Positions 754-53,788 of a DNA stretch of 64,000 nucleotides are shown piece after piece. Origin of the DNA: Nitrososphaerota archaeon (lineage in GTDB: Archaea; Thermoproteota; Nitrososphaeria; Nitrososphaerales; CADDZS01); contig JABDCJ010000003.1 of the NCBI GenBank assembly GCA_013288145.1, positions 1 through 64,000 of the forward strand, written 5' to 3'. Numbering within the stretch: the stretch's first letter is position 1; every line of letters starts with the position of its first letter. The notes below the pieces were generated by a model. The model was not told the origin of the DNA, did no database searches, and saw only the letters and a list, made by a program, of their open reading frames with translations. A program made the translations under genes and the position numbers.

Positions 754-880
754 TCTTTAGTCCCTTGTTCAAAGGGTTGATCTAAACCCAAATTCTGCGG
801 TAGGGTGAATATTGGTTGACAAAATGGCCAATCCTCTCTTCAATCCTTAAATTACTATGAGCGAGTGGTAACAAGAACAG

Positions 881-48399: not shown

Positions 48400-48424
48400 T
48401 GGTGATAGAAATTGACCCGTGGCG

Positions 48425-48802
48425 ATGGACGGTGATGAAAGCATTTCTTTTTCAAACTCTGCAGAAACAAATATCGGATCGGGTTATAATCAGTTGTCTC
48501 TGTTTCTTGCTATCAAAGAACAGCAGAATGACGACAGGTTTGATTCGGAGGCGATAGATTTCCAGACGAAGCAAGCTATGGTTGAACTAACTCGCAATTC
48601 TTGCAAAATGAAAAAATTAAGCCCTAAGCGGGAATTTTTGATAAGATCTCTAACATTCCAGGCAAGCATTTTGCAATTGGAAACAACTTTCTTGTTCATG
48701 GTTCGGAGCGACAACGAGAAAATACCGGATTCTCGTGATGAATTTTCGTTACCCTTAACTCAAACTTTTTTAACCAATTTGCATTGGCTTTCGACAACTT
48801 GA
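48425..48802 (+). CDS. Possible small protein, unknown (doubtful)
   Basis: A 125-residue frame from ATG 48425 that fills most of the gap between ada and the NrdD-like gene. The translation has mixed helices and no motif, membrane segment or cysteine pattern I recognise. It may be a genuine orphan gene or a chance frame. Its upstream region overlaps the divergent ada promoter. Treat with caution. Confidence 0.35.
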   Translation: MDGDESISFSNSAETNIGSGYNQLSLFLAIKEQQNDDRFDSEAIDFQTKQAMVELTRNSCKMKKLSPKREFLIRSLTFQASILQLETTFLFMVRSDNEKIPDSRDEFSLPLTQTFLTNLHWLSTT

Positions 48803-48927
48803 ATCTAATTAATTTCACCGATCTATCCGTGACCGCTTTTGTTTTCAGGAAGTTCGAATCAATAATTATTGACGATGTTTCTGCTATGGGGAATCAAGGC
48901 CGGAAACTTTCTGAGTGATTTCGAAAC

Positions 48928-51009
48928 TTGAGCTCGCCACGCCGCGTTAGAACTATATATTCAGTGATTGCCTCCCCCAACCGGCTCGATATTCTTCGGA
49001 TATTGAATACAAAAGGCCCACTGAGTTACTCGGAACTTAAAACTCTCGCCGGTTTCAAATCTAAGAAAGAGTCTGGCAAATTCGCATACCATCTTCGTAA
49101 GCTCGTAAAACAGACCCTTATTTCTCTAAACCGAGCCGAGAGGAAGTACGTTGTTACAAGTCTCGGCAGACTTGTCCTGAACTTGACAAAGCAAATCGAA
49201 GAACAATCCATGCTCGAGTCGGGGAAGCTCTACGTAAGAAGTTCAAGACAAGCGATGGAAGAGTTCAACGCCGACAGAATTCTGCAATCTCTGGTGAAAG
49301 AAGCAGGTATGCCTGTCGAGCTGGCGCAGAAAATAGCTAGCGAAACTGAATCTCGCGTTTATAAGTTTCAAACGGCATATCTAACGGCTCCACTTATTCG
49401 CGAGATTGTAAACAGCATTCTTGTCGAACACGGTTATGAGGAATACAGGCATAAGCTGACAAGATTGGGACTACCGGTCGCCGATGTCACCGAACTGATT
49501 AACCGGACTGGAGACAGTTCGGAGTCGATAGACTCGGTTCTGTTTGCAACTTCAGCCAAAGTATTCGCAGAGTACGCGATCCTAACAAAGATTCCAAGAG
49601 ATGTATCGGACGCACACCTTTCCGGGGACATTCACATTTCTAATCTGGGTGCCTGGAGCTTAATGCCGGATTCTGTCTACTTTGATCTAAATTTGCTTTA
49701 TTCCAATCCTTACAATCTTGGAAGTAAGCTCAGCAACATACCTAGGCTTGGCGCAATCAAGAATTTCGATGCAGCTTTTGAAACTCTTGAGGTTCTATCC
49801 AGTATAGTATCCAGGGAGGTAACAAGCGAAGTCTGTTTAGACAACTTGATCTCGTTTCTATCCAAGCTGTACGTTCCGAGGACAAAAGAGGAGCAAGTGA
49901 AAATGTTTTCAAGAATGTTTTCGTCGCTAGCAGCGGCAACCTCGCAAACGAGAGCTAAGAGCGTTACATTTCGGATCGGTGAACCACCGAAAGAAGAAGA
50001 CATTTCTTCACAACTTGAACTCCGTGATTCCTTACTTGATGCATATGCCAAGTATGTTGAGTTTGTCCCGGTTCCGGTTATCCATCTCGTCGTATCTCCT
50101 GGACGATACTTTGACAGAAAAATTGTTGAGGGAATCGCCAATGCAATCTCAAAGGGAGGCGAAATCGCGCTCGAATCTGAGGGAAAGTACCTGTTTTCGG
50201 GTCTAAGATTAGACAACATTGGTCCAAAAGGTTCGGCGATGAGAGATGCTGTCGCCTACCTGCAGAGTTTGACAGTGAATCTCCCTAGGCTGGCATATGA
50301 GTCGAACAAAGACGAGACTTACTTCAGAGCGAAATTATCCCTTTTGATTCAGACGGGAGTCAACGCTCTTGTCAATCGCAAGGATAACGTCAGGGATGGG
50401 CTGAAAAGAGGATTACTTCCTGCGATTTCGCAAATTCCAACCGTGTCTTCACTCGAAGAGATGCCCATTGTTGTCAATCTGATCGGACTCGACTCTGCGA
50501 TTTCGAATCTTATTTCCGAGCGGGAGTCTTTGTCGAAACAAGAGCTAGGTGCGAAGATCATTGATACAGCGAGTAAGGTGACATCGGAAAAATCGGAAAA
50601 GTTGGGTCATCGAGGACTTGTTTCCATGGTTCATATGGATGGATGTGAACGTCTGTCAGAACTCGATGTTGAAAGGTATGGTCGGTCCCAGGAGAGCCGA
50701 CTAACGGCATACCAGGAGGGTATCAATACGGTCTCTGATACCGTGGATAACGCGGATACAATTGCCGAGATCGCGGACCTATCCAGAGCAACCAGTGGCG
50801 GCTGTACGGTTAGATTGGGATTCTCATCAGATCTGGGGGATAACCAAAATTTCGGAAATGCTCTTTCAGCTATATTCGGAAAAGTGCCATTCGCTAGGTT
50901 TTCAAGAAATCCCCAGCTGTGCCGAAAGTGCGGAATGAAAGTTTTCAGCGGAGGGAGATGCCCGAATTGCAAGTCGACTTCTCTTGCGACCCAAGCGGTT
51001 CAAATCTGA
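48928..51009 (+). CDS. Winged-HTH / ATP-cone / NrdD-like fusion protein without glycyl radical site, putative RNR regulator
   Basis: A 693-residue protein from a TTG start. Residues about 1-90 form an ArsR-like winged helix (SPNRLDILRILNTKGPLSYS, then KFAYHLRKLV). About 98-195 match an ATP cone (AMEEFNADRILQSLVKEAGM, HGYEEYRHKLTRLG). From about 200, SDAHLSGDIHISNLGAWSL and TVNLPRLA match class III ribonucleotide reductase NrdD. The C-terminal ribbon Cys665, Cys668, Cys678, Cys681 matches the NrdD zinc site, but the protein ends 12 residues later, leaving no room for the glycyl-radical motif. A catalytic role is therefore unlikely. DNA binding plus nucleotide sensing suggests a transcription factor for the reductase gene that follows. 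Confidence 0.85.
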   Translation: MSSPRRVRTIYSVIASPNRLDILRILNTKGPLSYSELKTLAGFKSKKESGKFAYHLRKLVKQTLISLNRAERKYVVTSLGRLVLNLTKQIEEQSMLESGKLYVRSSRQAMEEFNADRILQSLVKEAGMPVELAQKIASETESRVYKFQTAYLTAPLIREIVNSILVEHGYEEYRHKLTRLGLPVADVTELINRTGDSSESIDSVLFATSAKVFAEYAILTKIPRDVSDAHLSGDIHISNLGAWSLMPDSVYFDLNLLYSNPYNLGSKLSNIPRLGAIKNFDAAFETLEVLSSIVSREVTSEVCLDNLISFLSKLYVPRTKEEQVKMFSRMFSSLAAATSQTRAKSVTFRIGEPPKEEDISSQLELRDSLLDAYAKYVEFVPVPVIHLVVSPGRYFDRKIVEGIANAISKGGEIALESEGKYLFSGLRLDNIGPKGSAMRDAVAYLQSLTVNLPRLAYESNKDETYFRAKLSLLIQTGVNALVNRKDNVRDGLKRGLLPAISQIPTVSSLEEMPIVVNLIGLDSAISNLISERESLSKQELGAKIIDTASKVTSEKSEKLGHRGLVSMVHMDGCERLSELDVERYGRSQESRLTAYQEGINTVSDTVDNADTIAEIADLSRATSGGCTVRLGFSSDLGDNQNFGNALSAIFGKVPFARFSRNPQLCRKCGMKVFSGGRCPNCKSTSLATQAVQI

Positions 51010-51475
51010 TGCTGCTGAATCGAAGTCGCGTTACTTAGGCAATCGCAAATAACTGTAGCCCGAGGCTAACGAATTTTCACATGTTAACAGTTTTGCACCA
51101 AGAGCTTTCGTAATGCCTAAGAGAGAATGTCAATTCTAGTTCACTAATTTTTACAGCTGGAAATCAGACCGCGCTCAAAGTTTTTTGGAGCCCGCTTAAT
51201 GTTAAATATTCTTTCGCATCTCCCTTTTGCGCTTCCCATGACAGAAAAAATAAATTCGTTTACTCGTTCAAAGAGACGAGATCAGTTAGGACAGACGATA
51301 AGTCGAAAGACCATGCCTTCTTTTCCGGAGATTTCCCGCTGGAACTATGCTGAAGCTAATATCGCTCGAAAAATCTTGCGCTATGCTTAATTTGCATGAA
51401 GTATAGATTACTTTAGTGTATTAATTTCGACAGACTGTCAAGAAAATTTAAGTAAATGTTATAGTGGTGGGTTTA
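51010..51475. other. Region between NrdD-like protein and NrdJ
   Basis: About 465 bases. It holds the nrdJ promoter at its end, and a short open frame near 51199-51390 that looks like chance. A cobalamin riboswitch was considered and not found. If the upstream protein binds DNA, its target may lie here, but no clear dyad stands out. Confidence 0.4.
51446..51452 (+). promoter_or_regulatory. TATA box for nrdJ, leaderless spacing
   Basis: ATTTAAG centred 27 bases before the ATG at 51476, supporting that ATG as both transcription and translation start. Confidence 0.55.
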
Positions 51476-53788
51476 ATGGAAACAGGTTCTATTGACGATA
51501 AAATAGCAGAAGAAATTGAAAATGTCGATGAAATAGCGAAAGAGCTCGAACAAATTGCGGTACCTATTGAACTGCCTAGCGAGACTCTGAACTTTTTCGG
51601 CGGGGACGAATTGCGGGCGCGCGTATTCTATGAAAAATATGCGCTAAAGGACCTAGATCGCCAAGTCGTCGAGAAGACGCCGGTGCAAATGTGGGCGAGA
51701 GTTGCGCGCGAACTTGCTTCGGTTGAAACTACCGAGGAAAAGCGGGAAGAGTGGACGAAGAAATTCTACTGGCTACTAGAGAACTTTAGGTTTGTACCCG
51801 GTGGCCGAATAATGTTCGGTGCAGGTCAGCCCCGAAGGTCTACGCTTCTGAATTGTTATTATCTTCCGATAAAGTCCGACTCTCTTGAAAATATCTTCGA
51901 CTTTTGCAAAGAGGCGGGAAGAACATACTCCTATGGAGGGGGAGTAGGAACGGACATTTCGATCCTTAGACCGAAAGGAGCTCCGGTAAACAATTCAGCT
52001 GTCGTCTCGACGGGTTCAGTTTCATTCATGGAACTCTTTTCGATCACGACTGGTACCATTGGGCAGGCGGGACGAAGGGGTGCTCTAATGATAACGATTC
52101 ACGTGGATCACCCGGATGTTGTTGATTTTATCGATGTAAAGCGAGACCTTGCAAAAGTAAATCATGCCAACATCAGCGTCTGCATTACTGACAAGTTCAT
52201 GCAGGCAGTTGAGCGGGATGATAACTTTGTTCTCGCTTTCAAGAATGAAAAGGCAGATGTCAAGCGAGTAGTCAATGCCCGCGAGCTATGGGATAAGTTA
52301 GTTAGGTCAGCTTGGGCATCAGCGGAACCAGGAATTATTTTCTGGGATAATGTCAAGAACGAGTCACCCACCGAGTACAACGGAATGGAGGTCCATGGAT
52401 TCAATCCATGTTCGGAGCAGTGTCTAGAGGACTATGGTTGTTGCTGCCTAGGCAATATTAATCTCTCTTCATTTGTCGTCGACGAGTTTTCCGACAAGGC
52501 GAGGATTGACTGGAGAAATCTGGAGAAAGCATTGAGGTACGGCACGAGGTTCCTGGACAACGTTCTGGATTACAACTCCGATAAGCATCCTCTTGAAGAG
52601 CAGAGAAAGGCGTCAATGTGGTCTCGCCGCATTGGTGTTGGCTTTACTGGGTTTGCAGACATGCTGATCAAGCTGAATCTAAAGTATGATTCTCAACAAG
52701 CTGTAAAGTTTGTGGATCGGCTCTTCGAGAAAATGAAGAACATTTGCTACGATGAAAGCTGCAATCTGGCAGTCGAAAAAGGACCTGCTCCTGCCTTTAT
52801 CGCTGAGAAGCACCTCTCTCGTCAGTTCATACAGCGGCTAGATCCCTCTGTAAAGCAGAAAATTCAATCGCAGGGAGTACGCAACTCTTGCGTGCTCACA
52901 GTTCCACCCGTCGGAAGCGGTGCTATTCTTGCTGGTACAACCTCGGGTATAGAACCGATCTTTGCAAGCAGCTATGTTCGCAAATCAAAGTCTCTATCTG
53001 GGGATGAGTTCAAGGTTTACCATCCGCTAGTTCAGCAGTACATGAAGAGGTTTTCCTTGAAGAAGGAGAGCGAGCTTCCAGAGATTTTCGTCACAGCTCA
53101 TTCCATCAAGGCAGAGTTCAGGGTTCAGATGCAGGGAACCATTCAGAAACACATTGATTCGAGCATATCAAGCACGGTGAATATTCCAAAAGAATCCAGC
53201 GTTCAGGATGTAAAGGACATTTACTTCCAGGCATGGAGGGCGGGCTGCAAGGGAATCACTGTCTATAGAGAAGGAGCGAGAGAGGGAATCCTTCTGACGA
53301 ACGAAGAGGCGAGCTCTCAGAAAAGTGGTATGGGTGCGCAGAAAGCAAAGTTCGAGCGGCCGACGATTCTCACCGGACACACTATGAAGATGAAGATCCC
53401 GCAGGGTAGCCTATATGTTACTGCCAACAAAAACGGTGATGATGTCATCCGCGAGACATTCGTCACCCTAGGAAAATCCGGCGGTGATGAAAAAGCTGAC
53501 GCGGAGGCTATTGGAAGACTGATCAGTCTCTACCTGCAGCACGGAGGCAGCATCCAAGAAGTCATCCATACTCTCAAAGGGATTCAGGGGAGAGACGTCT
53601 CGTGGGACAATGGACAGCAACTATTGTCCGTGCCCGACGCAGTAGCGAAAGCGCTGGCAAATCTGAGCGGTACGGTTGTGGAATCAAAGCCCGAGTTAAA
53701 GCACTGTCCGGATTGCGGCGAAAGTAGCCTGATATACGAAGCAGGGTGCTTCCGCTGTGCTTCGTGTGGATATTCCAAATGCGGCTAG
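51476..53788 (+). CDS. nrdJ: Adenosylcobalamin-dependent (class II) ribonucleotide reductase
   Basis: 770 residues from the ATG at 51476; GTG starts at 51464 and 51467 are less likely given the TATA spacing. Active-site motif NPCSEQC (Cys312 and Glu314 counted from this ATG) lies in FNPCSEQCLEDYG. The N-terminal redox cysteine is in LLNCYY, and the C-terminal CPDC...CASCGYSKC carries the swinging dithiols. The ADTGAxx-type barrel segments such as PPVGSGAILAGTTSGIEP are typical of class II. It reduces ribonucleotides using B12 and needs no oxygen or FeS activase. No ATP-cone domain is present, unlike many RNRs. It is convergent with pyrB. Confidence 0.95.
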   Translation: METGSIDDKIAEEIENVDEIAKELEQIAVPIELPSETLNFFGGDELRARVFYEKYALKDLDRQVVEKTPVQMWARVARELASVETTEEKREEWTKKFYWLLENFRFVPGGRIMFGAGQPRRSTLLNCYYLPIKSDSLENIFDFCKEAGRTYSYGGGVGTDISILRPKGAPVNNSAVVSTGSVSFMELFSITTGTIGQAGRRGALMITIHVDHPDVVDFIDVKRDLAKVNHANISVCITDKFMQAVERDDNFVLAFKNEKADVKRVVNARELWDKLVRSAWASAEPGIIFWDNVKNESPTEYNGMEVHGFNPCSEQCLEDYGCCCLGNINLSSFVVDEFSDKARIDWRNLEKALRYGTRFLDNVLDYNSDKHPLEEQRKASMWSRRIGVGFTGFADMLIKLNLKYDSQQAVKFVDRLFEKMKNICYDESCNLAVEKGPAPAFIAEKHLSRQFIQRLDPSVKQKIQSQGVRNSCVLTVPPVGSGAILAGTTSGIEPIFASSYVRKSKSLSGDEFKVYHPLVQQYMKRFSLKKESELPEIFVTAHSIKAEFRVQMQGTIQKHIDSSISSTVNIPKESSVQDVKDIYFQAWRAGCKGITVYREGAREGILLTNEEASSQKSGMGAQKAKFERPTILTGHTMKMKIPQGSLYVTANKNGDDVIRETFVTLGKSGGDEKADAEAIGRLISLYLQHGGSIQEVIHTLKGIQGRDVSWDNGQQLLSVPDAVAKALANLSGTVVESKPELKHCPDCGESSLIYEAGCFRCASCGYSKCG

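What the first reader, a model, noticed from the sequence alone, without database searches (positions are those of the whole stretch)
48928..51009. Possible reductase-derived transcription factor: winged helix + ATP cone + NrdD-like domain without glycyl radical site
A DNA-binding domain (about 1-90), an ATP cone (about 98-195) and a class III reductase-like body with its zinc ribbon (Cys665/668/678/681) are on one chain, yet the protein ends 12 residues after the ribbon, where NrdD would carry its glycyl radical motif. It is codirectional with and just upstream of nrdJ. NrdR, the bacterial RNR repressor, also joins a DNA-binding ribbon to an ATP cone, so this looks like an independent solution built from a dead reductase.
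Basis: partly seen in the sequence, partly recalled or inferred. Interest (0 to 1): 0.78.

Follow-up and report, generated by a model that had tools for sequence, protein, structure and literature searches.

The report
Dead-reductase regulator of archaeal DNA-precursor synthesis
In a large group of archaea that includes ammonia oxidisers, a dead copy of a DNA-building-block enzyme is fused to a DNA-binding head and, judging by conserved target sites, probably controls the gene of the working enzyme next to it and its own gene.

The parts
48928..51009 (+). Regulator gene: winged helix - ATP cone - NrdD-like pseudo-reductase, 693 aa, TTG start
   Evidence: several homologues start at the same column
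48940..49215 (+). Winged helix with C-terminal helix, residues 5-96
   Evidence: Pfam HTH_20/DUF7347; AF2 secondary structure
49063..49110 (+). Putative recognition helix, residues 46-61; 45-59 is invariant in 51 diverse members
49219..49512 (+). ATP cone, residues 98-195; signature VRSSRQ instead of VXKRDG
   Evidence: Pfam ATP-cone 32.3 bits
49513..50907 (+). NrdD-fold body, residues 196-660, without the catalytic cysteines
50920..50970 (+). Zinc ribbon Cys665/668/678/681; no glycyl-radical tail follows
51464..53788 (+). nrdJ, adenosylcobalamin-dependent class II reductase, the proposed target
   Evidence: Pfam and NCBIfam
48757..48776 (.). Predicted operator upstream of the regulator (best site of the 64 kb, 13.8 bits)
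   Evidence: Held-out-clade matrix, shuffle control
48856..48875 (.). Second predicted operator upstream of the regulator (rank 4, 10.7 bits)
51127..51146 (.). Predicted operator between regulator and nrdJ (rank 2, 12.7 bits)
51435..51454 (.). Predicted operator next to the nrdJ start (rank 3, 12.0 bits)
51202..51208 (+). TATA-like TTAAATA; the spaced words CTTA-N3-TTAA around it occur in 6 of 7 close relatives, the window included
   Evidence: Sequence; dyad counts

Best explanation
This is a one-component transcription regulator of ribonucleotide reduction made from a class III reductase that lost catalysis. A winged helix binds the palindrome GTCAA-N6-TTGAC, probably as a dimer (inferred), at its own promoter and in front of nrdJ (or in front of the shared operon where the two genes nearly touch). 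The ATP cone, and possibly the retained reductase fold, sense the nucleotide pool, so nrdJ expression follows dNTP supply. Shown by computation: domain make-up, loss of catalytic residues, synteny with nrdJ, strong conservation of the DNA-reading head, a shared operator-like palindrome at both promoters. Inferred: that this protein is what binds it; ATP/dATP as ligand; repression as the sign (by analogy with NrdR and because in several members the own-promoter site contains the TATA-like TTAAATA about 35 bp before the start codon).
For: Synteny: of 88 distinct order-type regulators (profile score over 500) 87 have same-strand nrdJ 1-508 bp downstream, the other ends at a contig end. Operator: independent de novo searches (width 16) gave GTCAAaA.tatTT.AC at nrdJ (score 128 against 57-68 in three shuffles) and GTcAAATatTTTTaAC at the regulator (170 against 64-68). 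Cross-training between the two promoter sets: 28 of 51 at 11 bits or more each way; shuffle means 1.01 and 1.45, maxima 5. With 43 other-clade members as training, the four best sites in the 64-kb window lie in the two flanking gaps (937 bp); the locus's best site lies in one of the two promoter regions in 44 of 51 loci against 2.7 expected by length; 0 of 2000 shuffles of the gaps gave four such sites. In G318 and G355 the strict palindrome occurs once in the genome, directly before the regulator. In the 5 representatives with gaps of 35-56 bp (probably related to one another) the gap holds no site but the regulator promoter does (11.1-13.5 bits). Conservation: head 79%, cone 65.5%, body 34%. 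Enzyme death; NrdG over cut-off in 0 of 81 genomes; fold NrdD.
Against: No binding data; a different factor could own the operator. The matrices were seeded with the consensus seen in all loci, so the held-out test is not blind to the motif's form. 4 of 51 members (L044, L048, L050, L055) have no site of 11 bits at either promoter; G066 and G228, the genomes of L050 and L055, have AmoA. Outside the order 5 of 50 regulator promoters and 3 of 34 nrdD upstream regions reach 11 bits, and no motif shared by the two was found. The strict palindrome is absent from G009 and G343, and in G002, G005 and G353 its 1, 4 and 3 places lie elsewhere, with 8, 4 and 1 for the reversed control pattern. The cone signature departs from VXKRDG, so ATP/dATP binding is not assured. 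In the window the 51127 site lies about 55 bp upstream of a TATA-like element, which would also suit an activator.
Confidence: 0.82

Rival explanations
1. Same regulator, but an activator of nrdJ: bound upstream of the TATA element it recruits the transcription machinery when dNTPs run low, while repressing itself where its own site overlaps the TATA box.
For: In the window the 51127 site lies about 55 bp upstream of TTAAATA, whereas own-promoter sites in L146, L152, L009, L007 and L142 start 34-37 bp before the start codon and contain TTAAATA.
Against: A second site at 51435-51454 lies 9 bp before the nrdJ start, which suits repression; NrdR, the functional parallel, represses (PMC9110341: abstract passage and introduction read).
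Confidence: 0.27
2. The operator belongs to another, unlinked factor; this protein controls NrdJ by protein-protein contact as a pseudo-reductase partner and its winged helix is incidental.
For: The protein keeps a reductase fold and a cone; no binding experiment exists.
Against: The winged helix is the best conserved domain (79% against 34% for the body); the same palindrome sits at the protein's own promoter; the adjacent NrdJ can differ widely (identity 0.30-0.31 between loci whose regulators are 0.55 identical), which is hard on a specific contact.
Confidence: 0.1
3. It is a working anaerobic reductase, as many database names say (ribonucleoside-triphosphate reductase).
Against: No glycyl motif in 101 relatives (two of them cut at contig ends) against 30 of 30 intact NrdDs; catalytic cysteine columns lost in nearly all; no NrdG over cut-off in 81 genomes; present in genomes with AmoA, i.e. 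ammonia oxidisers, aerobes by general knowledge.
Confidence: 0.01

Closest known systems
NrdR, bacterial repressor of reductase genes (PMC9110341: abstract passage, introduction and one methods passage read)
   Same: DNA-binding domain joined to an ATP cone; palindromic sites before reductase genes and often control of its own gene
   Different: Zn-ribbon head instead of a winged helix; no reductase body; rare in archaea; NrdR over cut-off in 1 of 81 genomes here
NrdD, class III anaerobic reductase
   Different: No glycyl-radical motif, catalytic cysteines lost, NrdG not over cut-off in the order, extra winged helix
ArsR/HTH_20-type winged-helix regulators (DUF7347)
   Same: Winged helix above Pfam cut-off
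   Different: The sensor is an ATP cone plus a whole dead reductase

Membership tests
NrdD (class III RNR), as an active enzyme | C-terminal glycyl radical motif | tested here: not met
   0 of 51 and 0 of 50 relatives (two of the 50 cut at contig ends) against 30 of 30 NrdDs; none in the forward frames after the gene
NrdD (class III RNR), as an active enzyme | Active-site cysteines (thiyl Cys and Cys79 equivalent) | tested here: not met
   Lost in the window protein; Cys79 column 0 of 30, thiyl column 1 of 30 relatives. Which Cys is which is recalled
NrdD (class III RNR), as an active enzyme | NrdG activase in the genome | tested here: not met
   0 of 81 order genomes over the TIGR02491 cut-off; weaker matches in 58; the window's own genome is not held
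NrdD fold superfamily (by descent) | NrdD barrel fold and Cys4 ribbon | tested here: met
[quoted passage not shown]
   The head is a winged helix; length 693 aa; TIGR00244 not among its NCBIfam matches
NrdR | Palindromic boxes at reductase genes and own gene | tested here: met
   A palindrome at both; its binding by the protein not tested
NrdR | Nucleotide-dependent oligomerisation and DNA binding | not testable with these tools
   Needs protein
HTH_20 / ArsR-like winged helix | Winged-helix profile and fold | tested here: met
   HTH_20 31.6 bits over cut-off 27; helix and wing pattern. NCBIfam HTH_metalloreg 23.9 is under its cut-off 55
ATP cone | Profile match and hairpin-capped helical fold | tested here: met
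   PF03477 32.3 bits over 25.8
ATP cone | VXKRDG signature (passage of PMC3267527) | tested here: not met
   VRSSRQ; V.[KR]R.G in 0 of 51 order members; the narrower V.[KR]R[DNS]G in 19 of 30 NrdDs

The most novel reading that the evidence does not exclude
The whole dead reductase is the sensor: surfaces kept from its old effector sites (not tested), together with the cone, read the balance as well as the level of dNTPs, so that a retired enzyme reports to the promoter of the reductase that replaced it. The family would be the RNR master regulator of a broad archaeal branch, ammonia oxidisers and Bathyarchaeia included, arisen by fusion of a winged helix to a duplicated NrdD and kept through the change from class III to class II reductases.
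Probability: 0.4. Interest if true: 0.9.

Novelty: new variant of a known kind. Interest (0 to 1): 0.8.

Why it matters
NrdR is rare in archaea (PMC9110341, introduction read) and nine searches of the held open-access library listed no paper on an archaeal reductase regulator of this build, judged by title and start of abstract. Here is a candidate with a predicted operator, a target and a sensor domain, matched in 75 of 81 genomes of its order, so the question becomes directly testable. It would also be a clear case of an enzyme retired to regulate its own replacement, and it suggests that many proteins named anaerobic reductase in databases are not reductases.

Tried and rejected
Active reductase: rejected. 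Riboswitch or other known RNA around the gene and in the nrdJ leader: no Rfam match at E up to 1 in 48400-51600. Operator outside the order: 5 of 30, then 5 of 50 regulator promoters and 3 of 34 nrdD upstream regions at 11 bits or more; de novo search there gave a different regulator-promoter motif (ccTaAAgTTTAAACtC, 106.6 against 61-68) and, at nrdD, a stronger motif that looks like conserved coding sequence, so no shared operator is claimed there. At width 21 the top regulator-side motif in the order was likewise the conserved coding start (225), the palindrome coming next (213). The first dyad count was clear for one group of seven and confounded by AT-rich and related sequences in the group of 32; it was replaced by the search on 51 representatives. 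nrdJ exchange: clustering at 40% identity by single linkage was uninformative (two clusters; 2 changes on the tree against 1.985 for shuffled labels); only the pairwise contrasts are used. The first AF2 model was poor over the head (block pLDDT 36-55), presumably because its alignment was nearly invariant there; the second, with bathyarchaeal rows, resolved it. The rows of both AF2 alignments were picked by hand: 65 and 53. One search repeated nearly the same 81 genomes as and is not counted again. No winged-helix or NrdR chain is among the 50 rows of either VIA list; the body fills them, so this says nothing about the head. Of 129 frames scoring over 500, 125 entered; left out were L105, L117 and L158 (contig ends) and L115 (N-terminus missing). 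In the 44-of-51 count the 43 non-held-out members were tested with only their own two regions removed from training. The roles of the Cys79-type and thiyl cysteines are recalled, not from a call.

Full report
What is there. Window 48928-51009 (+) is a 693-codon ORF with a TTG start. Pfam recognises a winged helix (HTH_20 14-65, DUF7347 10-84), an ATP cone (102-173) and NrdD (best stretch 445-685), each over its cut-off. The NCBIfam NrdD cut-off is not reached (TIGR02487 64 against 326 bits). Downstream on the same strand lies nrdJ, 51464-53788. On the other strand lie an Ada-type methyltransferase gene upstream and a carbamoyltransferase gene after nrdJ.

Who has it. 75 of 81 genomes of the window's order, some with partial matches, and 205 of 300 sampled from the phylum at E up to 1e-5 (the weakest may be intact NrdDs). 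Named records include Nitrososphaerales, Thaumarchaeota and Gagatemarchaeum, Nitrosopumilus, Bathyarchaeota, and Caldarchaeum and Aigarchaeota for short forms. Of 14 genomes checked for AmoA 11 have it, among them the ten I picked as probable ammonia oxidisers, and G353; all 11 carry the regulator. The window's own genome is not held.

Beside the reductase. Of 88 distinct order-type regulators 87 have a same-strand nrdJ 1-508 bp downstream; the other ends at a contig end. The nrdJ differs: L148 and L142 have regulators 0.55 identical but NrdJ only 0.31 identical, suggesting exchange of the enzyme in place. Outside the order 5 of 30 fetched loci have a reductase gene within the stretch: NrdD directly downstream in L060, L066, L078 (its frame is split) and L085, and NrdJ in L063; by coordinates seven further genomes (G100, G119, G137, G167, G256, G284, G289) show the same order of regulator and NrdD. 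In the other 25 of the 30 loci no reductase was found nearby.

The head is what selection keeps. Over 51 representatives below 85% identity, mean pairwise identity is 79% for the winged helix, 65.5% for the cone, 34% for the body, 39% for the ribbon, and 79% for the short 448-470 segment of the body; residues 45-59, at the recognition helix, are invariant.

The operator. An EM motif search on the 51 regulator-nrdJ gaps and, separately, on 51 regulator promoters returned the same 16-bp palindrome (128 against 57-68 and 170 against 64-68 in three shuffles each). A matrix trained on one set finds 28 of 51 of the other at 11 bits or more, against shuffle means of 1.01 and 1.45 (maxima 5 of 51), and 1.4% of 510 random 200-bp stretches of the same loci. 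With the window's clade left out of training (43 representatives), the four best sites in 64 kb are 48757-48776, 51127-51146, 51435-51454 and 48856-48875, all in the 937 bp that flank the gene; the fifth is at 803-822. Shuffled flanks gave 0.10 such sites on average and never four in 2000. The locus's best site lies in one of the two promoter regions in 44 of 51 against 2.7 expected by length. In the 5 representatives with gaps of 35-56 bp the gap has no site but the regulator promoter does, as expected for an operon. Against: the matrices were seeded with the consensus seen in all loci; 4 of 51 members (L044, L048, L050, L055) reach 11 bits at neither promoter; the strict pattern GTYAAWNNNNWTTRAC is a lone genome-wide match before the regulator in G318 and G355 and one of two in G007, but is absent from G009 and G343 and lies elsewhere in G002, G005 and G353; outside the order it is mostly not found.

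How it probably works. By analogy with NrdR (PMC9110341: abstract passage, introduction and a methods passage read) nucleotides bound to the cone would set DNA affinity, and repression of nrdJ and of itself is the likelier outcome. Own-promoter sites that contain TTAAATA (L146, L152, L009, L007, L142) fit self-repression; the window's 51127 site, about 55 bp upstream of TTAAATA at 51202-51208, leaves activation open. The cone reads VRSSRQ where reductases read VXKRDG (signature from a passage of PMC3267527). In P. copri NrdD Lys7, Arg8, Arg87 and Arg91 lie near the phosphates (passages of PMC11226230); the Lys-Arg pair is replaced here, while Arg174 and Arg179 near the cone's end are invariant in alignments A2 and A3, though not in all 51 representatives. 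One intact NrdD that follows a regulator (L066) begins its cone with VRTS too, so loss of binding does not follow, but the ligand must be measured.

Novelty. Nine searches of the held open-access library listed no paper on such a protein, judged by titles and starts of abstracts; PMC3019208 and PMC6593220 were read only in the passages returned. Subscription journals and preprints are not held, so this is not proof of absence. Databases name it reductase, ArsR regulator or both. I rate it a new variant of a known kind: a one-component regulator working like NrdR but built from a winged helix and a whole dead reductase.

Noticed in passing
L005:8529-13241: The nrdJ frame of this relative is 1570 codons, with two long insertions at positions matching residues about 132 and 163 of the window's NrdJ, perhaps inteins.
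   Followed up: no
L120:2307-5447 and L128:7836-11081: nrdJ frames of 1047 and 1082 codons, 26-33% identical to the other NrdJ in the contrasts printed: a further divergent subfamily behind the same regulator.
   Followed up: partly
window 803-822: Fifth-best operator-like site of the window (10.5 bits held out), 58 bp before an ORF at 881-1876 whose function was not examined; chance or a further target.
   Followed up: no
G341:C1:10034-10468: The only NrdR over cut-off among 81 order genomes; possibly a contaminating contig or a lateral gain.
   Followed up: no
   Followed up: no
window 51202-51463: In the window's clade a TATA-like element is followed by a leader of about 250 bases before nrdJ; no known RNA family matches it.
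   Followed up: partly
L175, L178, L196: Three nrdD upstream regions outside the order carry a good copy of the palindrome (13.8, 18.2 and 12.4 bits), a hint that the operator may be older than the order.
   Followed up: no
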